Below, one piece after another: positions 11,569-50,157 of a stretch of 64,000 nt of DNA. The first letter of the stretch is position 1, and each line of letters begins with the position of its first letter. The translations under genes and the position numbers were made by a program. Below the pieces are notes generated by a model. It was not told the origin of the DNA and did no database searches. It saw nothing but the letters and a program-made list of their open reading frames with translations. Source of the stretch: Macrocystis pyrifera (taxonomy: Eukaryota > Sar > Phaeophyceae > Laminariales > Laminariaceae); NCBI GenBank assembly GCA_031763025.1, contig JASSKH010000030.1, positions 2,239,197 through 2,303,196 of the forward strand, written 5' to 3'.

Positions 11569-11759
11569 AATGGTTTCTGAATGACGGGGCTTCTTAACCC
11601 AAAATCGTCGCAATGCCAATCTTGTTTCGAAAAAAGACGTTTTTGTATACTTGGGGCCATGGGATTATTCATCGGGATGCATTTTGATTTTGGTTGAGAT
11701 CAGTTTTCGGGTGAGGTGTGGAGCTCCTTAAGTGAGGAGCCTCATAAAATTTAGGGTGA

Positions 11760-11917
11760 TGTTATGATGCTGCCTTGAATGAGGCTGAAAGCCCGGTAAT
11801 TACCTGGGTTCAAGTATTAGGATCGTATTTGTAGTACTTGGGAGGCGTATTGTAGAGGGAAAACCAGGGGTTTTCCCAGCGAAACACGAGCTCGGCTCTT
11901 GGTCTCCGCGTGCACCG
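11760..11917 (+). repeat. 5' LTR, first part only
   Basis: Closely matches the first ~155 bp of the 3' LTR at 22004: TGTTATGATGCTGCCTTGAA, CTGGGTTCAAGTATTAGGAT and GAAAACCAGGGGTTTTCCCA are shared. Similarity stops just after GTGTGCAC/GCGTGCAC, where the inverted segment begins. Confidence 0.85.
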
Positions 11918-12477
11918 GAGAGGGCTTCCGTCCTGTAGACCTGGTGGGGCAGGGGAACGATGTAGCTAATCTTGTCGACTCCTCCAAGAAAAAGGGTGGA
12001 GCGGCCACCGTTATTTCGAGGAAACGCCGAGTCGAGCTTCAACCGAGATCTCGGGGTTTCGGTGTTGGCCTTCCCGCACCTCAAACCGACCGCCATCGCA
12101 TGGCCGGGAGGTGAAGGAGGGAGACACCCTCGCTGAAAGAAACGACGCGACGGCGTGACACTCGAGATGCTGCTCGGTGCGTGGTTCGGGAGAGCGGCAT
12201 TTGACGCGCCTGCTCTCGTGCCCAGGTTGAGGGGAGTGGCGTTTGAGGCGCGGGCTCCGGACACCGGGGAAGACGCCCGGGGGCTCCCCGGTGAAATATG
12301 TGAGGCTGAGTGGCTGCGTCGGGCCGAAGTACGGGGCAACGCGCGGGGCGGGAGCGGAGCAGGTCGACGCTGAGCGCTGAGCGAGCCTGGGACGCGAACA
12401 TCTTGTGAAATCAACGTGTTTTCTCTCGGCAATGCTGGCGGCGGACGGGCAGGGCGGGCTGAACCGCCGTCGACCTG

Positions 12478-14702
12478 TCAGTTACCGGCGCGGAAGGTGC
12501 CTGGCTGGCGTCCGTTCGGGTTTCCGCTCGAGAAATGCGAAGCACCGAAGCGAATTCCCGAGGAGGGAGCTGGAGTGGAAGAAGCAGGGGCAGTCGAACC
12601 ACCACCGTGATGACCGGGGTTAGACTGTTGGTGTCCTCGTTCTGCGTGTGTATTGTAGTCGCAAAGTCTATTCTGTTGGCCCTGGCCGTGCTGCTGCCCA
12701 CGCGAGTGGCCGGAACGATGCTTTTTTTTCTTCTGGTTATGTTTGTTCGGTCGTGACTTGCACTCGCGGCGATGTCTGATCATGCGTTCTTGCCAACGGC
12801 GGAACGCCTCGCCGTCGTCGCCGAGGGTTCCGAGGTCGGGGTTCAAAATGGCGCTAAAATTTTGAAAGGGGTGTCTACACTGTCTAAGTAAGTGTGAGTC
12901 TTCGTGGCAGTTCAAGCAGTGACCTCGGTTTTCGCTGAGGGCGGCGGCGCGAGCGGAGGATGAAAGGAGGCCGCTCCAGAGGGGAGGGTCATCGGTCTGG
13001 ATGGACATGTAAACAGCGTGAACTTCAGCGTACTAGTGTTCTTCTAGGAGCCAGCAGTTGGAAGGGGTATCAAGCCACGGGTCGAGGCAGTCAGGGATGG
13101 ATGTGTTGACATTCATCACAAGGGGATTATTGCGCGATCCCGTCTGCCATGAAGGCGACTGGAGAAGCGTCCGGCCCTGGCCGTGACCATTGCTGGCGGG
13201 CCGGGGCCCCGACGGGGCGGATGACCGCACCCCCGTTGAAGAAGCAGGCAAAGAAACATATTTTTCGCCGTTGACGGCAGGTGTCTTATTATTCGCGAGA
13301 GTCTCAAACGGCAACCACATGGCGTCCAAAGCGCCGAACGGCCTCGATACCTAGCCAAAACTCCCGGGTACTGCGTGGGCATCAAGCTGGGGTACTGCTC
13401 GTTAACTGCCATCCAAACCACCTCCAGAACAACCTCCACCCCCGGTGGCAAAACACGCTCAGTCCCCGTCGCTGCCGACACCACCTCTCCAAATGCACGG
13501 CTAACTTCGCTTAAGGGGGTCCCGTTAGGCACGCCAAAATTATGCACCTTGGTGTAGCTGGCCCCCGTGTCGGTGCTGTCGAAGTGGTTTCTCAGTAACC
13601 TCAGGAGGAGCGTGAACACCTCCGGTCTCGTCGATCCGGCTGCGAGGGCGCGCAAAACCTGTCCAAAAAAATATCTTCCATCAAGGTAGTGAGGGGAGCG
13701 GTGGTGGGCTTGTCAGGCGTAATGACGCGCGAAGGATTTCAGGACGGGGTACACCCAACCGGGGATCCAATCGGTAGAACTAAGGCCCTTACGGCTGCCA
13801 TCATTGCACATCATGAGAATATCAGACGCGGAGGCCTGGACCGAACGAGTGAGTTGTTGCGCGGCATCGGAAGGGTTGATCGCAGAGGGAAAAGGTAGGA
13901 CAGAAATACGAGAGATGTCTTTGAGTCCTAGGTGTTTGTACGCCCGTTGAACATCGGCGGTGTGCTTTTTTCGCGGCGACTGCCGCGGCGGAGTCGATCG
14001 CCGATGTTCGGGCGTGAGCGAGGTTAGACGATACGGGCATGGCGCGGTCATCGGACATGGTCAAGCGACCAAGAAGCGCGGCGGATTAAACAACATCGGT
14101 CAGTGAGAGAACCACTTGCCTTTTTTTGCTGGCCGTGACCTCGGGGACGGGGTTTTTGCCGTTGCCGTCGGTGGAGGAGCTGGAAGAGACAGCAACTGGA
14201 AGAACTTGCATGAGAAGCGCCTCCTCGTGGGTGGTATCTCCTGGAGCGCCTGTCGCTCGAGCTCTCCTGCCCCTGGCCGCGGTTTCTCCGACGCCCAGCC
14301 CCGTTTCGCCGAGATGTGGCCGCGGTTCGATCTGTACCCTGCCCACGGCGGGACCTGCCGTTATGGCCGGCCGGGAGTCAAAGCTGCGATCCCCAAGGCC
14401 CGGCTGGTCACGCGCGTCACTCGCTTCACAGAGCGGGAGCGCCCAGTTGTCTTGGACGGCAGAACTCGCTCAGTCAAGCCAGAAGGCACGGAAGGGTTAT
14501 TGAACGAGGTCCGTCTGCCGGAGGCTGCTCGGGCTTCGTCTTGGGGCTCCGGCCGCGGCTCCTGCTCCTCTTGTTGGTATGTTGTACAAGGCGCTCGATC
14601 CCCATCGACGAGCCTTGGGCGGTGGGGCACTGAGGGGCCCTGGGCCTCAGTGGCTCGGTCACCGTGAGGGGAAACAGACCCTCCCCCCTCATGAGTCTCC
14701 AT
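12478..14702 (-). pseudogene. Gag polyprotein, inverted and frameshifted
   Basis: Reading the minus strand from an ATG at 14702, coding-like protein continues with several frame changes to about 12478. Pieces in order are an acidic/Pro-rich N-terminus (14702-14361) and an Ala/Ser-rich linker (14346-14086). Next comes a capsid-like helical region (14051-13713 and 13655-13116, with FTLLLRLLRNHFDSTDTGAS). The last piece (13008-12478) is nucleocapsid-like, with a CCHC zinc knuckle CLNCHEDSHLLRQC at about 12925-12880. A Lys/His/Arg-rich stretch and a Gly/Ser/Pro tail follow it. Cx2Cx4Hx4C is the hallmark of retroelement nucleocapsid and binds RNA in the virus-like particle. Gag is opposite to pol because of the inversion, so Gag-Pol cannot be expressed together from this copy. 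Confidence 0.75.
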
Positions 14703-14811
14703 CGTGCAGTGTGCGGAGCAAACTTACTCTAGGAAAGTGAAGTGAAAAGAAAGAGTGACCAAAGGCGAGCCACCAACAAAAGGCGAAAAATCCTAAGCCA
14801 AACATGCCACT

Positions 14812-14922
14812 TGTTAAGATAAGGGTCGGGGCACTTTGTATCCCTGGACAGCTTAGCATATTAAGTCGGTACTCGTTGGTACTCACGTGTGTTGTTTGCT
14901 TAGAGATTGAAGAAGAGAAGCC
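14812..14922 (-). repeat. Second half of the 5' LTR, inverted
   Basis: TGTTAAGATAAGGGTCGGGG, CACTTTGTATCCCTGGACAG, AAGTCGGTACTCGTTGGTAC and TGTGTTGTTTGCTTAGAGAT are the reverse complement of the last ~105 bp of the 3' LTR. Reading the minus strand, the LTR end CTTAACA is followed by AGTGGCATGTTTGG. The LTR element at 48055-49152 has TGGC at a similar place (AAGTGGCGTCGTCGG), so this is the probable primer binding site. The tRNA used cannot be named from these bases. Confidence 0.8.
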
Positions 14923-15123: not shown

Positions 15124-15700
15124 GCCACTGACGACTCGGTAACGTCGGTCTTTGACCCTGCTCTCGAGTTTTCAACGGAGCGGGTGGGGCTGGTCTAGCA
15201 GATCCCCTCCTATTTTTCGCAGTGGTCACCCTCGTCTTTTGTCGTTGACGATGTGTCATATTCCTGCGCGGAGCAGTATATGATGGCTGAAAAGGCTCGC
15301 CTGATGGCTGAAAAGGCTCGCCTTTTTCAGGACCACGACGCAGCGGAGCGGATTATGGCCTCGGCAGACCCACACGAGCACAAACGCCTCGGTCGAGGCG
15401 TGCATAACTTCGACCGCCCTATCTGGGACTGCGTTCGGGAAGACGCCATCCTTGCTGGTACTTTTGCCAAACTCACGCAGAACGCGGTCATGAAGCAGCA
15501 CCTATTGAGCACTGGCAGCAACATTTTATCTGAAGTCAGCCCTTTCGACTCCGTGTGGGGCATCGGTCTCTGGGCAGACGACCCCGAGGCTCAAGGCCCT
15601 CTCGGTGACGTGGGAAAAATTTGCTCGGGGAAGCTCTTTCTGCCGTTCGCGACACCCTCCGCTCAAGTGAGGCCGGATTGGCACACCCCGCCTCCTCTCA
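15124..15700 (+). pseudogene. NADAR (YbiA-like) domain at the N-terminus of Pol, decayed
   Basis: The reading is YFSQWSPSSFVVDDVSYSCA then EQYMMAEKARL (15205-15305), FQDHDAAERIM, HKRLGRGVHNFDRPIWDCVR, FAKLTQNAVMKQHLLSTGSN, SEVSPFDSVWGIGL (about 15531-15575), then in another frame RGKNLLGEALSAVRDTLR (15609-15662). This order matches the NADAR family (formerly DUF1768; E. coli YbiA): the S-x-EQ helix with its catalytic glutamate, LGR..V..F, the QN..L...L..TG core, the SP.D..WGIGL signature and the closing GKNLLG..L..VR. Family members cleave N-glycosidic bonds of ribosylated or ADP-ribosylated nucleotide substrates. Damage: TAG at 15196, a 21-bp tandem duplication repeating MAEKARL (15280-15321), a frame change near 15600 and TGA at 15606 where the family has Trp. 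The domain runs into the protease region, so it was part of the polyprotein and not a neighbouring gene. Confidence 0.85.
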
Positions 15701-16468
15701 TCAATTTTGCACTCCGACCACGCCTGACAGAATTCGTGATATTTCACCATCGCCGCCCCGCCCTTTGGCCGTGGCCCGTGCATGCCCAGGTCCTTCCTTG
15801 GAGTTTTCGACCTGTTTTTCTGACGTGCCCGCAGATCAAAGCCCCGAGGTTTTGGCTGTCGCCCCTAGTATCGACCCCTCCCTCGTGCTGCCAGAATACC
15901 GCCCTTGCCTCGTCGAGGGCACCATTACTCTCAAAGACGCCTCTTCCACAACCAAAATCACGATTCACAGCGGAGCTGGCGTTCTTGCACCTTTTGGTTG
16001 CGTGGCGCTTCCAGACATTGGCTCCCCACATATTTTTTATTAGACGAGATGTTTTAGACCTCATGCTCTCGGTTGGTGCGGCATCCTTCGCGTGCGATCA
16101 CAAATGCGCCCCTGGGTTTTGGCGAATCGGCCCCTCTGAAGACTTCGACGGGTGTGCGCCTGAGCGTTCATTTCTTTCGAGAAAATGAGCCTACGTGCTC
16201 CCTCGCAGTTTGGGCCTGCGCGGTTCCCCCCTCAGTGATGCAGCATGCAGTACTGCAGGGGCGCGACAGCTGGGTGCGTTTTAATAGCCGCTCCTACCGC
16301 TCTCTGCTACCTCGGCCGTCAGACCAACGCGTTTTTGTCGAGCTGGAGTTAGTTCACCACGCCCCGACAGGCATGTCTGTGTACACCATCGACCCCGCCG
16401 CTTCGGGTAGAGGCTTCCATTTACGCTACGAGGGCGCTGCAGGCGTCACTCTGTCCGACGATCCCTAA
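15700..16468 (+). pseudogene. Retropepsin-like protease and linker region of Pol
   Basis: After the NADAR domain a Pro/Ser-rich linker leads to VEGTITLKDASSTTKITI followed by HSGAG (about 15916-15980). This is the place and context of the aspartic protease D-S/T-G-A motif; the catalytic Asp codon reads CAC (15966-15968), which abolishes activity. Downstream, after a frame change, comes GVRLSVHFFRENEPTCSLAV and DSWVRFNSRSYRSLLPRPSD (16162-16330), a segment between protease and RT that reads like the rest of the protease fold plus connection. An in-frame stop at 16466 separates it from the RT frame. The protease would process Gag-Pol in the particle. Confidence 0.65.
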
Positions 16469-16878
16469 CTGTTTGCTGTCAACTTGGTTCGCCGCGATGG
16501 CTCCCCGGCTCTCACTGAACACTACTTGGTCGACATGATGCCCCCGCCCGACCTACCCTCGGTCGAGGAGCACTTCGTCGCCTCAGGACGACAGGTTCTT
16601 CCCCTCGTTGGAGTGGCGGATTTCGAACGGGGAGACTTCCTCTGCATCGCCCACGCCCCACTGCTGAGCGTCCCGCTGGACGTTTTGCAGCCAAACAGCC
16701 GAGCCCCCAGCCCTCCCTCTGGACTATCTGAGGCGCCTCCGGTCTCGGCAATTGCAGCTTCCCCCCCCTCGCGCAGCTCCAGCCTCACTCTCGCCCGCAC
16801 TGCTTGAGCGTTTGAGCCCAGAACAGCGCGCTTCGTTCCTGCGCGTCTGGGTGCGTTTTTCCGTTACATCTACGAGCG

Positions 16879-17691
16879 GTGGCTTTTGACATTCACGGCA
16901 CGGACTGGACCTCTGAGACCATCGAACAACTTGGGGATGTTCGCTGCAAATTTCCTGACGTTTTCTCGAAGTCCACGTTGGATTTTGGTTCCTGCTCGTT
17001 GATGCCATTCGTGATTTCGGTCCCGGAAGGAAGCGCTCCTGTCACGTCCAGGCCGCACCGCATCAATCCCATCCTGGCCAAGGAAGTGGAAGCCACCTTG
17101 GACCAGTACCTCGCGGCAGGCCTGATCCAACATTCGACCTCTCCGTACTCGAGCCCCCTGGCGGTTATCCCGAAGAAGTCTGGAGGCGTTCGGACCACCG
17201 TGAACTACAAGAAACTCAACCAGATCAGCAGACTCAGCCAGATGCCTATTCCTCGCGTGGGCCAAGTCCTCGACTCCCTGGGGAAGGGACGGGTGTTTTC
17301 CCTCTTCGATTTGGTCTCCTCGTGCCACCAGATTACCGCGCACAAGGACACCGTCCCTCTCTCGGCGTTTTGCACTCCCACGGGCCTCTACGAGTGGCTC
17401 GTCATGCCCCAAGGTATCAGTGCTTCGCCCGGCTGGTTCGCCAAAGTGAATATCGAAGCCATTAAAGGTCTAGCACAGGTGGCGGCCTACCTCGATGACG
17501 TGATCGTTTACGACTCTGATCCGACAGCCCAGGTCAAGATGACACACGAGCCCTCTTCGAACGCCTGCGCAAACGCAACCTCAAGCTCTCCCCCTCGAAG
17601 GCTCGCCTCGGCGCCACGGACGCAAATTTTCTGGGCCACTCTATTTCGCCCGCGGGTACACGCCCAATTGCGGATGAGGTTTCCGCTTTGA
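16879..17691 (+). pseudogene. Gypsy reverse transcriptase
   Basis: A long, well-kept reading with the Ty3/gypsy RT landmarks in order: YSSPLAVIPKKSGGVRTTVN (about 17149-17205), FSLFDLVSSCHQ with the first catalytic Asp (about 17305), PQGISASPGWFAKV (about 17408-17450), and YLDDVIVY with the catalytic Asp pair (about 17491-17515). After VYDSDPTAQVKM the original frame is left by a frameshift near 17545. The expected continuation LSPSKARLGATDANFLGHSI is found in another frame at 17586-17645. The domain copies element RNA into DNA in the cytoplasmic particle. It is the most intact part of the element, with catalytic residues present, but the frameshift cuts off RNase H. Confidence 0.9.
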
Positions 17692-18320
17692 TGAAAATTC
17701 CCATGCCCAAGAACCTCAAGCAGGTCCGTGCGCTGATGAGCGGCGTGGGATATTATCGCAAATTCCTGCCTGACCTGTCTAAACGGATCCGCCCTCTCAC
17801 TGCCCTTCTTCAGAAGGGGGTTAAGTACGTATTTACGCCGGCTATGGAAGCTATCGTCAGCCAGATCCTCGCCGAGCTCGCTGCCCCACCGATTTTGGTC
17901 TTCCCTGACTGGGACGCCGTAGCCGACGGCTCCCGCCCCTTCTACGTGTACTGCGACGCCTGCATCGACGGTTTTGGCGCCGCGCTCGAACAAGAACAAC
18001 CTGACGGCTTGGTACGGCCCATTACTTATATCAGCCACGCTACCCTCGATTCCGAGAAGCACTAGACCCCGTTGGACCTGGAAACTGGCAGCATTGTCTA
18101 GGCCATCAAACGACTCCGAGGTTTCCTGTGGGGCGCGAAGTTTCACATATTTTCGGACCACAAAGCACTTGAGAGCATCGGCAAGATAGGGAGCCACAAC
18201 GCGTGAGTCCAGCGGTAGCTCGAGTTCCTCACCGCCTTTGACTACACCCTCGAGTACCGCAATGGCAGCGCCAACGGAAATGCTGATGTTCTGTCCCATT
18301 TGCCGGAACCCGCCACAGAA
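17692..18320 (+). pseudogene. RT connection and RNase H domain of gypsy Pol
   Basis: IPMPKNLKQVRALMSGVGYY is followed by FLPDLSKRIRPLTALLQKG (17697-17820), the classic gypsy RT thumb/connection. RNase H then shows YVYCDACIDGFGAALEQEQ (first Asp, about 17945-18000) and, past two stops (TAG at 18063 and near 18103), LRGFLWGAKFHIFSDHKALE (about 18115-18175), followed by a third stop TGA at 18203. The end of the domain shows DYTLEYRNGSANGNADVLSH at about 18238-18297. The final LP...G..N..AD.LS motif is typical. Several stops in an otherwise well-conserved sequence indicate recent decay by point mutation. Confidence 0.85.
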
Positions 18321-19204: not shown

Positions 19205-19329
19205 CACGCCGATTGGGCTCGGTAACAACAGGCCGAGCCCGCGTGCAACGCCGCTATGCGCTACATAGCCCTTGGCAGGCCGGAAGTTTTGCCCGCCGAC
19301 TTTTTGTCGTGTTTCCCTTCCCACTAGCG

Positions 19330-20500
19330 CCCTCCCTTTTCGGAGGTTCAGGAGCTGGCTAACAAAGGCCGCTTGCAGACCACCGACGCGGGCATCGTTC
19401 TACTCGTCCGACAGCCGCCCCCCCCCCCCCCTTGCGTCGGACACGCAACGACCGGTGGGTCGTACTGCCTGTTTATTGAACCACGAGCCTATTCGCCTTT
19501 ATGTGCTGCTGCTCATGCGCCCCTGGATCATGCAGGCTTGCCATTCCACAGCTTCCTGCCACCTAGGAACCGCGCGCACCCCACGTATGCTCAAACGTTT
19601 CTACTGGTGGGATCGGTATGAGCATCTGCACCCGGTGGTGGCTACGCAACTGCTTGAAGTGCCAAGCACGGAAAACGTCGCGGCAGACGGTCCGTGGCCC
19701 AGCATCACGTTGCCCTTGCCAGAAGGGCCCGGCATCGCCGTCAGCATCAACTATTTCAGCCCTCTCCCTATGCGAGGCCTCGAGGAAATAGTTACATCTT
19801 GATTTTCACTCATCGTTCCAGCCGCCGAGCCGACATGTACGCCGTCACAGCGGCAGAGTTCACCGCCGAAGGCACGGCTAACATTCTCATCAATCGGTAT
19901 ATTCCCCTCTGGAGGTGCCCGCGCATCATCCTCTTGGACAACGGCCTCCAGTTCTACTCCAATCTTTCGCACACCCATTTATCAACCTCTCGGGGTTCGG
20001 AAAATTGCCACCAGCTTCTTCCACCCAAACAGCAACGGTGGGGTGGAACGTGTAAACCACACGATGGCCCAGATGCTGGCAATGGTCGTCAACGAGCTCC
20101 AAAACAACTGGGATGAACAGCTCCCTCATGTCGAATTCGCGTATAACAACTACGCCTGCGCCGCCACGGGTTCGGCTCCCAACGAGGTGCATATGGATCG
20201 GCTGTCACGCCTGCCTCTCACGATTGTCGAGCCTGCTGGAGTCGCCGGCCACCAGAGTTTGGCCCGCGGCCACCTCGCCTACTGCGACTTGGCGACGGGC
20301 CGTCAGCAGCGCGCGTACGATATCGTTTGCGAACACCACACCCTCCCTGTTGCTCACGTGAACCGCCGCAACCCCACCCTTTCCGACTCTCTGCGTCTAG
20401 TCCCCAAATTTGACGTGGGCTGCTGGGCGTGGGTGTACAATACGGCGGCCACCATTTGCCAGGGCCTGAAGTCCGACACGGACGCCAAGGTCCTCTAGGC
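19330..20500 (+). pseudogene. Gypsy integrase (zinc finger and catalytic core)
   Basis: The zinc-binding region is present around 19480-19680 across frames (MLKRFYWW; a Cys-x-x-Cys readable as CLKCQ). The core follows with LPLPEGPGIAVSINYFSPLP (about 19714-19770); the first catalytic Asp of the DDE triad, expected before YF.PLP, reads Asn. The second Asp is present in LDNGLQFYSNL (19936-19968) and the Glu in NGGVERVNHTM (20035-20068). After it come EQLPHVEFAYNNYACAATGS and the C-terminal part with WVYNTAATICQG. At least two frame changes and a TAG at 20498 interrupt it. The domain would insert element cDNA into chromatin; this copy is inactive. Confidence 0.85.
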
Positions 20501-21380
20501 CAAACTCTCACTCAACTGGACGGGCCCCTACAAAGTCCTCACAGTTGGCCCCTGCTCCTCAGCGGACACCCCGGACGGATCTTCCCTCGGGGCAAAGCTC
20601 CTGTGTTTGGATCTTCCTTCCGATATGCCCGGCGCTGATGCTCGCCGGCGCGTATCAGTTCAACGCTGCAAGCCCTGTGCCAACCCCCACGACCGTGGCG
20701 ACATGCCAGAGTATTTTCCGGCGGGGTTGACTCCATACGTGCTCAGCAACTTCTCCAAGAAATCCCCCCCGTACCACGTCACCCAGGATGACGTTTCGAC
20801 CCCTCTTGAACGACTCGAAGTAGAAAAGATTACCGGACACCAACCGGTTAGAGGTCGACGTGGCGTCATCGCGGTGATGTACGATTCGCACTGGACAGAG
20901 CTATCCCGTCCATCCTGGGGACGGGAAATAGACCATCAGCTTTCTCGTCGTGAAATTCTGCGCTACTGGACCGGCACCCCGAACCAGTGCCGCCAAAGCA
21001 ACCGCCTGTACCGTCGGATGAGAATCGGCGCGGCACAACGGGAGCTTTCTCGGAGTAACGGCGGCCGGCTTCTGGCACCCGGCTATGGCTGCGTATCGCA
21101 CGCCGATTGGCTTCGTCGATACAACAACACTATGCTTGCCAACGGGGCCCACGTTTGGTACAAGGGCGACGACAGTCTGTGGTGGCTCGGGAAAATCAGC
21201 GCGACTACGCCAACGGATGGAGTTTAGTTGGTTCGATTTTAGGAAGACCCGGGACCGATCAAGCTTCCTATTTCTCCGGCGCGCTACACGACTTCCACGA
21301 GACCTGTACGAGGGTCTTGGTGTCCGCAAACTCACTTGGCTAGCGCGTTTGCAAGGGGGGTTCAGCGTAACGTAGATTAA
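20500..21380 (+). pseudogene. Integrase C-terminus with chromodomain-like and Tudor/SH3-like modules
   Basis: After KLSLNWTGPYKVLTVGPC (about 20502-20555), the usual SH3-like C-terminal fold of gypsy integrase, a long reading continues. VEKITGHQPVRGRRGVIAVM followed by YDSHWTELSRPSW and a charged helix (20818-20975) has the I-x-x-x-R...Y-x-x-W pattern of a chromodomain, which in chromoviruses reads histone marks to choose insertion sites. A further C-terminal module around 21140-21330 (ANGAHVWYKGDDSLWWLGKI, then LVRF, DPGPIKLPISPARY) looks like a Tudor/SH3-like barrel. TAG at 21226 and 21239 interrupts it. Domain assignments here rest on pattern only. Confidence 0.55.
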
Positions 21381-21389
21381 TCTCGAGGG

Positions 21390-22003
21390 ATCGCCGTGGA
21401 TAGCTGACTTACGCTTCTCGACTGGGCTCGATATTTTTTTTCTTGTCGTTTTCCTGGACTCTGGGGGGTGGTTTTTCTACCCCTTGACGTTTTCCGAGTT
21501 TTCGGGTCTGGGCTTTTTCTTCTCGGTGTGTTTCTGGTTTGCTTTTATTGGGCTGAGTTGGGGATGATTTTTGCGTATTTTGTCCTGCCTACCCCCCCCG
21601 CTCAGTGTCTGGGCTGGTCTGGGTAACCAGGTCACTCATTTGTGGCACAGGACACGTTTCCAGAGTTGTGGGCTGGGTTCAGGTGGTTCTTGGCGTATTC
21701 CGTGATATTTTTCTTTTCGTTTTCGGTGTTCATTTTTCGCTTTTCCACGAAACTTCCTCGCCCACCCCCCCGTTGCGGGTGGCATGGCGATCGCTTTCAT
21801 TGACGATTTATTCCTGCCCCTTACCGCAGGGCCTTCCTTTATTTCTTTCTTTTTTACGTACAGTGTCGGCTTCGTTGCCTCGCCGTTCAGAGGTGTGGGA
21901 GCGGGTTTCGAGGAGCCGCATCTTCGACTCATGTTCTAGTTCGGAATCGGGGTTTCCACAAGTTCCCATAATTCTGCCTATACGGCTCATCAGAGCGGGC
22001 TGA
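21390..22003 (+). other. Non-coding 3' region of the gypsy element
   Basis: About 610 bp, T-rich, without coding-like frames, between the end of pol and the 3' LTR. The same sequence in reverse makes up the internal part of the LTR-only element at 48346-48875 (shared CACTCATTTGTGGCACAGGA-like and TTCCCATAATTCTGC text). It is therefore a family feature and probably carries packaging or priming signals. Confidence 0.65.
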
Positions 22004-22281
22004 TGTTATGATACTGCCTTGAATGAGGCTGAAAGCCCGGCATTTTCCTGGGTTCAAGTATTAGGATCGTATTTGTAGTACTTGGGAGGCGTATCGTAGA
22101 TGGAAAACCAGGGGTTTTCCCGGCGAGGCACGAGCTCGGCTCTTAGTCTCCGTGTGCACGAAAGGAATAAAGCTGCTCTCCTTCTATCTATAAGCAAACA
22201 ACACACGTGAATACCAACGAGTACCGACTTAATTGGCTAAGCTGCCCAGAGATACAAAGTGTCCCGACCCTGATCTTAACA
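22004..22281 (+). repeat. 3' LTR of the gypsy element
   Basis: 278 bp, begins TGTTATGATACTGCC and ends CCTGATCTTAACA, with short inverted ends TGTTA...TAACA. It contains GGAATAAAGCTGCTCTCC, a possible polyadenylation region (AATAAA at about 22168). Two further full copies of this LTR lie at 48055-48345 and 48876-49152 in reverse. Confidence 0.9.
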
Positions 22282-22890
22282 GTGGACCTCTATCGTAGAA
22301 TGCCTCGGCTTCTTTCTGTTCTGGTCTAGTGTGTGTGAAATCGTTCTATCCGTTGGGCTCCTCCGGAGAATGCTGCTTTCAAGTATGACTTTGCTTGATG
22401 ATTTATTTCTGCGTGCGGCAAGATGCCAAGAAGGTGGTGCTAACTAGTGGTCAAGATGTCAAAATCGTCAGATGGTATGCACGTGTTTTATAATTATTGT
22501 CAGCTGCTCGCATGGGCGAGTCGTTTATTCTTGACAGGAACGAAGCAAGAAGGGGTTTACTCTCCTTTCCTTGAAAAGCCTGTCTGTGCTGCAGGGCCGA
22601 GGTGGTAAAGTCAAGTAAATTCAGCAATTCGTGGCCGTCAGCGTCGGTGTGAGCTGACGAGCCGTGTTATGGTGTCAGAAAAGTGGTTGAAGATTGGAGC
22701 CTAAGCGTTTTTTATTGACAAGGTTCCTCAACCGTTGCATGTGACGAGCCACCCAATACCTGTTACGTTACGTCATCCTGTGCCACCGATACGACCACTT
22801 AAATGGTCCTCGTTTGGGTATACGCCTAGAAGGGGGTTGTCATTCTGATGTTCGTCACTGCGAGTACCAACAGCCCGCCTGGGGTATCAA
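22282..22890. other. Gene-free stretch with a MITE family 2 end
   Basis: ACCTCTATCGTAGAATGCCTC (22286-22306) directly after the LTR is a MITE family 2 terminus without its partner. The remainder shows nothing recognisable. Confidence 0.5.
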
Positions 22891-37599: not shown

Positions 37600-38345
37600 T
37601 GACATCATCTGTATTTTTTACAGCCTAAACCCTCCAGCCCCCGTAGACAGGCTCGCCTGCGCGAGTTGGTGGAGCAGCCACGTCAATGCACCCGTCGGGC
37701 AGCCATCCTCGAATAACAACGATTCTTCTGCTGTCCCCGGGAGATTAAGCAGGTTCTCCAACATCCACATCGCGCTGGTGTCTGCCTTTTGGCATACCGA
37801 TAGGGACAACTCTGGGCCCATCACCCGCTCGATTTATGCTACATGCCGAACCATGGAGCCGGTGGCAATCAGGTTCAGCTGTTTGTCTGGCATGCTTGGC
37901 AGCATCCCCGCGAATCTTTCCGCTCCACCCTCTTCGACGATCTTGATCGCGCTTTCCTTCGCGTATCTGTCGGTTCCCGATGGACACTCCACCCACCTTC
38001 ACCCCACCCCGGTCCGTGGTGTGGATGTCAATGCCTCCAAGAAGAGAAATTTCTTGCGACGTGGGGGTGTTCCCCTTCCGGGGTAAGGCGGATGTTTTAC
38101 CCGCGCTCATAGCGATGCCGACGTTAGCCAGCTCTCGCCGGCGGAAAGACATAGACCCCACAGTGTCGGCCGTAAATTCCATGATACCCATGCTGATGTC
38201 GTCCAGGTAGGCGAACGCCTCGGCACCTCCTGGCTCCAACTCCCCTCGGGTCCGCTCCAGCACCGGCTAGAGCGGCCTGCAGGACAACGCCGGTCCCATG
38301 ACATCCTTCGCCTCCAGAAGGTCTCTACACCAGTGCCAAACTTCT
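37600..38345 (-). pseudogene. Reverse transcriptase fragment with YLDD box
   Basis: Minus strand: KDVMGPALSCRPL (about 38315-38275), then FAYLDDISMGI (about 38210-38175) with both Asp of the catalytic box intact. FRRRELANVGIAMSAGKTSA and TSQEISLLGGIDIHTTDRGG follow, the usual G-K and L-G segments after the box, then a helical C-terminus with MWMLENLLNLPGTAEESLLF (about 37790-37730). Frame changes near 38260, 37990 and 37830. The RT N-terminal half is not seen next to it. Confidence 0.65.
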
Positions 38346-48054: not shown

Positions 48055-49152
48055 TGTTAAGATCAAGGTCGGGACACTTTGTAGCGCTGGACAGCTTCGC
48101 CTATTAAGCCGGTACTCGTTGGTACTCACGTACGTGTGTTGTTTGCTTAGAGATAGATAAGTCTTAGAGCAGCTGTATTCCTTGAGTGCACGGGGAGACT
48201 GAGACCCAAGCTCGTGACTCGCTGGGAAAACCCCTGGTTTGCCACATAAAATACGCCCCCCAAGTACTACAGATACGATCCCAATACCTGAACCCAGGTC
48301 ATTTTACCGGGCTCTTTCAGTCTCATGCAAGACAGTATCATAACACTGGCCCATTCTGATGAGCCGTTTACGCAGAATTATAGGAAATTCATGGGAAACC
48401 CCAATTCCACGAATAGAACATGAGTGAAAGATGTGGCTCCTCAAAACCCACTCCCACACTTCTGAACAGCGAGGTAAAACGAAGCCGGCAAGGTACGTCA
48501 AAAAAATTGAGAAAGGAAGGCCTATTGACTGTAAAGGACTGGAAGAATTCGTCAACGAAAGCCATCGCCATGCCACGCAACGGGGGGGGGGCGAGAATGT
48601 GTCTATGGCAAAGCGAAAAGTGAACTCCAAGAACGAGAAGAAAGATAACACGGATTGATCCACGAACCGCCTTAACCCAGCCCACAACTCCGGAAACATG
48701 TCCTGTCTCACAAAATGAGTTACCCGATTACCCAGACCCGCGCCGATACTGAGCGGGGAGGTAGGCAGGACAAAATACGCAAAGCCCATCCCCAACCTAG
48801 GCCAAGAAAAACAAACCAGGAACATACCGAGCAGTAAAAATAAACCTGACTGTCCTGCCGACGACGCCACTTACTTGTTAAGATCAAGGTAGGGATATAG
48901 ATACACAGGTTTGCCTACTACGCCGGTACTCGTTGGTATTCACGTGCGTTGTTTGCTTAGAGATAGAAGAAGAGTAGCTTTATTCCTTGAGTGGCACGCG
49001 AAGACTGAGACCCAAGCTCGTGGCTCGCTGGGAAAACCCCTGGTTTTTCATCAAAGGTATGCCCCCCAAGTTCTACAAATACGATCCCAATACCTGAACC
49101 CAGGTAATTACCGGGCTTTCAGCCTCATTCTAGACGGCAGTACGTCATAACA
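48055..49152 (-). mobile_element. LTR element reduced to two LTRs and a short interior
   Basis: Left LTR 48055-48345 and right LTR 48876-49152, both reverse orientation, begin TGTTAAGATCAAGG and end TAACA, and are clearly related to the LTR of the gypsy element at 11760-22281. The interior (48346-48875) is only 530 bp and non-coding. It matches the 3' non-coding region of the gypsy element in reverse, so gag and pol are entirely missing. Reading the minus strand, the right LTR is followed by AGTAAGTGGCGTCGTCGG (probable primer binding site). This is a non-autonomous deletion derivative of the same family. No clean target duplication: right flank is a C-run. Confidence 0.85.
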
Positions 49153-50157
49153 CCCCCCCCCCCCCCCAAATATGACCTTCGAGCATAACTATATACCACA
49201 ACACCAATCGCAGAGCCTGCCAAAATAAATACCAGGCATGTACCTGGTAGTAGGTGATGTATTACGACTGAAATTGAAAAAACACAAACAGCGTTCCAAC
49301 TATATCGGAAGTTTCCTCGTGTACTTCTTTCATTGACAGAGGCGTCATCGTTCAGGAAACAAATGCCTCAGGTAATGGCCAAAAAGTGTTACTGGGAATA
49401 TGCCCGTATCGTAGCACGTGCCTTCCCATGCATGGCATATCATACTACTACTAGCTGTTACAGTTGGTACGTGGGCTTTGTATATCTCTGGTAGCTATAT
49501 GGGCTCCGTACGCATGCCAGTAACAGTCAATGTCCGTGTCTGTCTGTCTCTAGAGCTCTCTGTCTCTCTGTCTGTATTTAGAACCCATAGACACCTACCT
49601 GTACAGCGCAGCAACACACGCGATCGTTCTAATAAATTACGGTGTGTCTTTGGGTGTGCGCAACATCGAGACAACAATGAAGACCGCTCGCGGCTCATCA
49701 TCGCCGCAAGTTCGATACTACTACTACCATACTGCTGATGATGCATGCTGCTGTACCACAGATACACATACATACCAAGATACCATACACGATATATTGC
49801 AATATTCATTGTGCTACGTTTTTTCCTCCGCTCTCTCAGAGAGTGTTGTGTGCAGATACGTGCACATAATATATATATATCCACAATCAACCGCCTGGTC
49901 AGCACGATGACAAGTAGCAATCATTTTGAGCCACACGAGTGATTGTGACGGGAAATGTGAAGCAAAAAACGATTTGGAAGAAAATAACACGTAGTTTTCT
50001 GCCTCCGGCGGCGCCTCCACCAGCAGCCCCCCTCCCCCGGCCACCACAGCCACAGGGAGGGATGACGGTTGGCCTTGCTACAGGCATATGACTCGCTCCG
50101 CTCGAACCCAGTACGATGCATCGTCATAAGTTTCAAGTGTGTATATGTATATACCAA
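49153..50157. other. Gene-free stretch
   Basis: A C-run at 49153-49167, CTGTCTGT tracts near 49534-49570, and overlapping AT-rich frames without protein character. Confidence 0.5.

What the first reader, a model, noticed from the sequence alone, without database searches (positions are those of the whole stretch)
15124..15700. NADAR (YbiA-like) N-glycosidase domain built into a Ty3/gypsy Pol polyprotein
Seen: the NADAR landmarks (FSQWSPS.F, S-x-x-EQYMMAEKA, LGRGV..F, QN..M..HLL.TG, SEVSP.D..WGIGL, GKNLLGEAL..VR) lie directly ahead of the protease and RT of a gypsy element and run into it without a gene boundary. Known: NADAR proteins such as E. coli YbiA hydrolyse N-glycosidic bonds, and relatives are reported to remove ADP-ribose from guanine bases. 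Inference: the retroelement may carry an enzyme that reverses host nucleic-acid ADP-ribosylation or alters NAD-derived signals, that is, an anti-defence or repair function for its own RNA/cDNA. I know of no standard gypsy architecture with this domain. The domain decays in step with the rest of Pol, which argues it was a genuine module and not a later host insertion.
Basis: partly seen in the sequence, partly recalled or inferred. Interest (0 to 1): 0.88.

Follow-up and report, generated by a model that had tools for sequence, protein, structure and literature searches.

The report
NADAR enzyme inside kelp Gypsy retrotransposon
A family of jumping genes in a kelp genome carries, inside its replication polyprotein, an enzyme domain of the kind that removes ADP-ribose from nucleic acids; the arrangement was already published for another brown alga, and what the enzyme does for the element is still unknown.

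Summary
Window 15208-15588 (+) matches Pfam NADAR at E 3.7e-34 and keeps the three active-site positions of the solved Phytophthora NADAR. It precedes protease, RT, RNase H and integrase in a decayed Ty3/Gypsy copy; Gag lies on the minus strand because about 3 kb is inverted here. The genome's size and contig count fit Macrocystis pyrifera. The 46 other copies examined fall in two families. Protease follows NADAR in 20 of 20 long NADAR-picked loci. Of 133 RT-picked places, 42 have a listed NADAR upstream, and so do 10 of 12 sampled from the other 91. Not in the passages I read: two NADAR families in one slot, kinship of one to brown-algal proteins and Myxococcota, an RT-deleted derivative whose junction occurs 125 times, and a conserved UGA at the Gag end. 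Purifying selection is supported in one family only. Function is inferred.

The parts
11754..11915 (+). first part of the 5' LTR, cut off by the inversion
   Evidence: 93% to 21998-22159
11913..14921 (-). segment inverted in this copy: rest of the 5' LTR, leader, Gag and part of the stretch between Gag and NADAR
   Evidence: 11913-14183 matches four of four siblings compared on the minus strand (to 14124 in L010), 14919 onwards on the plus strand; LTR remainder inverted at 14807-14921; about 245 sibling bases have no counterpart at the right junction
14807..14921 (-). remainder of the 5' LTR, inverted
   Evidence: 89.6% to 22172-22285 reversed
12478..14060 (-). Gag, in several frames; zinc-knuckle-like stretch in 12478-13032
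   Evidence: its pieces match Gag upstream of NADAR, same strand as NADAR, in 9 of 20 long sibling loci; no Pfam match; zinc-knuckle label is by eye
12478..12480 (-). UGA that ends Gag, followed by CAG
   Evidence: AAC-TGA-CAR also in sibling copies of both families
15208..15588 (+). NADAR domain, main part
   Evidence: PF08719 E 3.7e-34; E, K, E kept
15609..15662 (+). NADAR C-terminal end in another frame
   Evidence: PF08719 profile 146-163, E 0.093 alone
15729..16043 (+). protease region (decayed)
   Evidence: matches the same place in 20 of 20 long sibling loci; LLDTGS in the L012 piece printed, read as the protease motif from recall; no Pfam match in the window
16816..17691 (+). reverse transcriptase
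   Evidence: PF00078 E 1.1e-12
17520..18065 (+). end of RT and RNase H
   Evidence: PF17919 6.7e-11, PF17917 1.6e-7
19269..21227 (+). integrase region in three frames
   Evidence: PF17921 6.2e-5, under its cut-off; at least one of its pieces matches in 18 of 20 long sibling loci
21998..22285 (+). 3' LTR
   Evidence: pairs with 11754-11915 and, inverted, 14807-14921

Best explanation
A decayed copy of a copy-rich brown-algal Ty3/Gypsy lineage whose Pol begins with a YbiA-type NADAR domain. Shown: NADAR identity and kept active-site residues; its place between Gag and protease; the same architecture in Ectocarpus; a conserved UGA-CAR at the end of Gag. Inferred: Pol, and so NADAR, is made in small amount by read-through of that UGA (or another recoding), is packaged with RT, and there hydrolyses N-glycosidic ADP-ribose bonds on element RNA or cDNA (guanine ADP-ribose or a related adduct), keeping the template copyable against host modification.
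For: NADAR match. The model of P0005, an unnamed database protein of the fam1 NADAR clade (pLDDT 92.6), best matches Phytophthora NADAR with ADP-ribose, 8bau, TM 0.85 by query length. Active-site positions in fam1: E 29/29, K 27/29, E 29/29; in fam2: E 14/17, K 17/17, E 17/17; window all three. Guanine-ADP-ribose hydrolysis by the Phytophthora NADAR, with mutants made in the E. coli C7 NADAR: PMC11543638 (passages). Activity of other NADARs including a myxobacterial YbiA: PMC11125620 (passages). Fam1 pN/pS 0.52 (0.40-0.61), below all 60 neutral simulations (0.60-1.04). Five Ectocarpus polyproteins with NADAR and RT. UGA-CAR in 11 of the 14 sequences where the junction motif was found, of 21 looked at; frame open from the UGA into NADAR in L013 and L022.
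Against: No biochemical or expression data. The DarT profile found nothing in the genome. Fam2 pN/pS 0.59 lies inside its neutral range 0.47-1.32. Copies for the selection test were picked by NADAR score, which favours conserved ones; 6 of 29 fam1 copies have a stop inside NADAR. The Gag end is in the NADAR frame in only 5 of 13 loci with the motif (1 of 5 in fam1), and of four linkers translated two have stops, so read-through is not shown for fam1. Some element pieces show no NADAR at the place looked at: L077 and L082 (RT-picked), L092, L094, L095 and L096 (integrase-picked). In the E. coli C7 NADAR, changing the residue that matches the first E to alanine had only a minor effect in vitro.
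Confidence: 0.42

Rival explanations
1. NADAR acts on soluble NAD-derived signals or ADP-ribose metabolites of the host cell, as proposed for phage NADARs: anti-defence in trans, not template repair.
For: PMC9503650 (passages) argues that phage NADARs mostly target small ADP-ribose derivatives; NADARs are common in phage records (683 of 50,697 match fam1 NADAR, all under 60% identity).
Against: Placement inside Pol suggests low amount and particle-bound delivery (inference); the same paper argues that polyprotein NADARs of eukaryotic RNA viruses target macromolecules.
Confidence: 0.22
2. NADAR processes RNA ends or repair by-products needed for priming or finishing reverse transcription (the RNA-processing role suggested in the Ectocarpus paper).
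For: Suggested in PMC12477816 (passages); NADAR is tied to RNA repair in PMC9503650 (passages).
Against: No RNA-repair partner domain among the 18 window frames scanned by Pfam; siblings were not scanned by Pfam.
Confidence: 0.2
3. NADAR has a binding or structural role only, or is a passenger no longer selected.
For: Fam2 pN/pS not below neutral; NADAR less constrained than RT in fam1 (0.52 against 0.36); 6 of 29 fam1 copies with a stop in NADAR; some element pieces without NADAR at the place looked at.
Against: Active-site residues kept in nearly all copies examined; domain shared with Ectocarpus elements.
Confidence: 0.16

Closest known systems
NADAR-bearing Gypsy lineage of Ectocarpus (e.g. 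Gypsy-12_Ec32; PMC12477816, passages)
   Same: [quoted passage not shown] five Ectocarpus proteins found here carry NADAR and RT by Pfam, one of them also integrase.
   Different: Another host; two NADAR families; an RT-deleted derivative; inverted 5' part in the window copy. The paper reports almost only bacterial blast hits outside Ectocarpus; here brown-algal proteins without recognised Gypsy domains group with fam1. It reports a C-terminal chromodomain for Gypsy-12; the last window frame (20499-21227) gave no chromodomain in Pfam at E up to 1.
Phytophthora nicotianae NADAR (8bau) and E. coli YbiA (2b3w)
   Same: Sequence profile and fold, E/K/E of 8bau.
   Different: Solved as separate proteins; here the domain is part of Pol.
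NADAR in ORF1 of Tx1 LINEs of the Pacific oyster (reported in PMC12477816)
   Same: Retroelement-borne NADAR.
   Different: Non-LTR element and another position; sequences not compared here.
NADAR in polyproteins of nidoviruses and other RNA viruses (PMC9503650, passages)
   Same: NADAR embedded in a replication polyprotein.
   Different: RNA viruses of animals, not an LTR element; not compared here.

Membership tests
NADAR superfamily (PF08719) | profile match over the curated cut-off | tested here: met
   118.8 bits against 35.1
NADAR superfamily (PF08719) | residues matching E43, K50, E125 of Phytophthora NADAR | tested here: met
   mapping uses a numbering offset of 2 between chain and paper, worked out by hand and the same for all three
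NADAR superfamily (PF08719) | N-glycosidase or ADP-ribosyl hydrolase activity | not testable with these tools
   needs a bench assay
Ty3/Gypsy (Metaviridae) | order protease, RT, RNase H, integrase, with LTRs | tested here: met
   protease by likeness to siblings only, integrase Pfam match under its cut-off
Ty3/Gypsy (Metaviridae) | RT groups with Gypsy RTs in a tree | not tested
   no RT tree was made
Ty3/Gypsy (Metaviridae) | target-site duplication | tested here: inconclusive
   none evident by eye at the LTR flanks (letters printed); LTR ends not sharply placed
NADAR-Gypsy lineage of brown algae | NADAR at the N-terminal end of Pol, shared by copies of the lineage | tested here: met
   that it is the same lineage as in the paper rests on 74-75% RT identity to Ectocarpus P0215, not on a tree
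DarT-linked NADAR antitoxins | a DarT gene in the genome | tested here: not met
   0 PF14487 hits in G000, six frames; the control search rang in 1 of 14 genomes

The most novel reading that the evidence does not exclude
The same Pol slot holds NADARs of two origins: fam1 sharing a source with a brown-algal cellular gene, fam2 from another, bacterial-like source. Element lineages, including a derivative without RT, keep the enzyme because brown algae restrict retroelements by ADP-ribosylating their nucleic acids.
Probability: 0.13. Interest if true: 0.78.

Novelty: new member of a known kind. Interest (0 to 1): 0.42.

Why it matters
It shows that the published Ectocarpus architecture is not confined to that genus: it is present in many copies in what is most likely giant kelp, with active-site residues kept in most copies examined. 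If the enzyme acts on nucleic acids, this points to ADP-ribosylation as a force acting on retroelements in a group where I know of no work on it (recalled, not searched). Two NADAR families in one slot and many RT-less copies give material for testing what the domain is kept for.

Tried and rejected
Rejected: a chance match (E 3.7e-34); an insertion private to this copy (siblings have NADAR at the same place); a DarT-linked antitoxin (no DarT hit).

Unresolved: one or two NADAR captures. Both careful trees place fam1 and fam2 apart. Of 115,710 quartets, 74.9% join fam1 (with Ectocarpus elements) to its near bacteria and fam2 to the far set, 12.0% join the elements, and 31.6% of all are in the unresolved centre; but the near and far sets came from the fam1 and fam2 searches, which leans the result. 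AU tests do not reject one element clade: p 0.167 and 0.179 (fast trees). Unresolved: whether the brown-algal proteins gave rise to fam1 NADAR or the reverse. A search of this genome with the Pylaiella protein listed 150 of 1403 candidates, none above 59% identity, the best at known element places.

The third of three likelihood-mapping runs did not finish. The search with fam2 NADAR alone did not complete.

Full report
WHAT IS THERE. The window frame 15199-16188 (+) matches Pfam NADAR at E 3.7e-34 and NCBIfam TIGR02464 at 5.1e-32. The end of the domain continues in another frame from 15609. RT, RNase H and a below-cut-off integrase zinc-binding match follow on the same strand. The window is G000:C212:2239197-2303196 in a genome of 537,376,219 bases and 223 contigs, with a contig of 26.5 Mb. 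These figures fit the Macrocystis pyrifera assembly table in PMC10498591 (passages); the species is therefore an inference.

ANATOMY OF THIS COPY. LTR pieces 11754-11915 and 21998-22159 are 93% alike; the rest of the 3' LTR (22172-22285) has its partner inverted at 14807-14921. In all four siblings compared, 11913 to 14124 or 14183 matches on the minus strand and 14919 onwards on the plus strand. So about 3 kb holding Gag is inverted in this copy. The copy is decayed: in-frame stop, frame changes, a short tandem duplication in NADAR.

OTHER COPIES. The NADAR profile gave 1264 candidates; 150 were scored and all 150 matched, so counts are lower bounds. From that list I fetched 20 places at 10 kb and 20 at 2.8 kb, chosen by eye for spread, besides eight short loci of the best hits, two of which repeat long ones. 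That gives 46 distinct copies: 29 fam1, 17 fam2. In the 20 long loci the protease piece follows NADAR on the same strand in 20, at least part of RT in 19, at least one integrase piece in 18; Gag is found upstream on the same strand in 9. Of the 11 without a Gag match, nine are fam2 loci sharing a deletion of the Gag core; L011 and L019 are not explained. Fam1 has NADAR about 75% and RT mostly 86-90% identical to the window, fam2 about 39% and, where RT is whole, about 73%.

COPIES NOT PICKED BY NADAR. RT-picked: of 133 hits besides the window (134 scored of 3448 candidates), 42 have a NADAR of the list 1.6-2.0 kb upstream; of 12 sampled at random from the other 91, 10 have NADAR there, L077 and L082 do not. 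Integrase-picked with the fam2 piece (150 scored of 3380): 59 of 150 have a listed NADAR within 9 kb upstream. Of 8 sampled at random from the other 91, and looked at only where an RT-less copy would have NADAR, 1 had it, 3 held the stretch between protease and RT (so the look was in the wrong place), and 4 (L092, L094, L095, L096) showed none. So element pieces without NADAR exist; how many are transposed derivatives and how many truncations is not known.

DERIVATIVES. Among 17 fam2 copies, 12 lack most of RT and all of RNase H by coverage while keeping NADAR and protease; one of them, L028, shows no element match after the protease. Eight of eight aligned share one deletion junction. The junction occurs 125 times in the genome against 0 for the reversed control. 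Of the 100 places listed, 58 have a NADAR of the list upstream (57 of them at about 1.8-1.9 kb) and 64 an integrase hit of the list downstream; both lists stop at 150, so these are lower bounds. The one junction copy looked at directly, L095, had no NADAR there.

EXPRESSION. In both families a stretch ending QPGTFR(A/T)GN or QPGTFRTN is followed by UGA and then CAR-GYC-GAY-GGY-GG. The motif was found in 14 of 21 sequences (20 loci and the window): UGA in 11, GGA in 3 (L020, L021, L024). It is in the NADAR frame in 5 of the 13 loci (L009, L012, L013, L022, L024), out of frame in the other 8, of which 4 are fam1. Of four linkers translated, L013 and L022 are open from the UGA into NADAR, L009 has 2 stops and L012 has 4. 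Between the families only the first 29 and last 12 linker residues align, at E about 0.01. That UGA followed by C is a leaky context is recalled. Read-through is thus a fair guess for fam2 and open for fam1, where frames disagree among decayed copies.

SELECTION. Active-site positions: fam1 E 29/29, K 27/29 (one M, one T), E 29/29; fam2 E 14/17, K 17/17, E 17/17; window all kept. pN/pS: NADAR fam1 0.52 (copy bootstrap 0.40-0.61, n 29, 6 with a stop), fam2 0.59 (0.41-0.91, n 17, none with a stop), RT-less subset 0.55 (0.37-0.80, n 12); protease 0.65 (n 25) and 0.60 (n 17); RT 0.36 (n 17) and 0.38 (n 4); RNase H 0.49 (n 8) and 0.25 (n 3); integrase 0.29 (n 5) and 0.35 (n 9). An earlier, smaller set gave NADAR 0.44 and 0.56. 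Under the observed substitution spectrum the neutral value is about 0.81 (0.60-1.04 in 60 simulations) for fam1 and 0.76 (0.47-1.32) for fam2. Purifying selection on NADAR is supported for fam1 and not shown for fam2; the RT-less subset was not simulated on its own. Copies were picked by NADAR score, which leans towards conservation, and the simulation ignores shared ancestry.

ORIGIN. Search with fam1 NADAR gave 2081 proteins, 120 listed: the top are unnamed ENA proteins at 63-84%, which I take for element copies in other assemblies without seeing their context; then, near 58-63%, proteins of Ectocarpus (two species), Pylaiella and Scytosiphon, one EukProt protein of unshown species, and Nannocystis and other bacteria. 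Search with fam2 NADAR gave 94, only one of them (P0024) in the fam1 listing. The five algal or EukProt proteins are 209-252 aa with NADAR as the only Pfam family reaching its cut-off; their gene context was not seen. In the 90-row tree they are sister to fam1 (97/77) and fam2 stands elsewhere. With seven proteins added, fam1, six of those (five Ectocarpus, one unnamed) and the five form one weak group (83/75), with Chrysoparadoxa outside (81/95); P0220, which has no RT, falls among bacteria. In quartets, 74.9% of 96,425 join fam1 (with Ectocarpus elements) to the five. AU tests do not reject a single element clade. Against Ectocarpus P0215, fam1 and fam2 are alike in RT (74 and 75%), differ little in RNase H (67 and 72%), more in integrase (73 and 64%, not the same stretch) and most in NADAR (61 and 49%). 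This hints at replacement or faster change of NADAR in fam2 and does not decide.

WHAT IS KNOWN. [quoted passage not shown] Here 5 of 18 long proteins with NADAR are Ectocarpus proteins that also carry RT. PMC11543638 and PMC11125620 (passages) show guanine-ADP-ribose hydrolysis by several NADARs. PMC7922944 (passages and listing) describes a stress-induced Ectocarpus NADAR protein; its sequence was not compared here. In the Ectocarpus paper I read only the matching passages, so some of what I call new may be in its figures or supplements.

MECHANISM. Most likely a particle-associated hydrolase of ADP-ribose adducts on element nucleic acid; rivals are action on small NAD-derived signals, RNA-end processing, or a non-catalytic role. 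The main gap is the absence of a known host modifying enzyme: the DarT profile found nothing (it rang in 1 of 14 control genomes) and other transferase families were not searched.

VERDICT. Real and wider than the window shows, but the architecture is already in print: a new member of a known kind.

Noticed in passing
G000, 125 places; e.g. L014, L015, L020, L021, L022, L024, L026, L027: A fam2 derivative with one shared deletion of most of RT and all of RNase H; the eight aligned copies keep NADAR, protease and integrase.
   Followed up: partly
L013, L014, L015, L021, L022, L025, L026, L027, L028, upstream of NADAR: Fam2 copies sharing a deletion of the Gag core.
   Followed up: partly
window 12478-12480 (-) and siblings: Conserved UGA-CAR at the end of Gag, changed to GGA in L020, L021 and L024.
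   Followed up: partly
window 48055-49158: Minus-strand pieces about 81-84% like the 3' end and LTR of this element: remains of another copy.
   Followed up: no
window 37748-38266 (-): A frame with a YLDD stretch resembling a reverse transcriptase by eye; no Pfam match.
   Followed up: no
P0011, P0034, P0040, P0069 (named brown algae) and P0028 (EukProt, species not shown): Short NADAR proteins, some with a cysteine-bearing N-terminal stretch by eye, grouping beside fam1 element NADAR.
   Followed up: partly
L049-L075: 27 viral contig loci encode NADARs 42-56% identical to fam1 NADAR.
   Followed up: no
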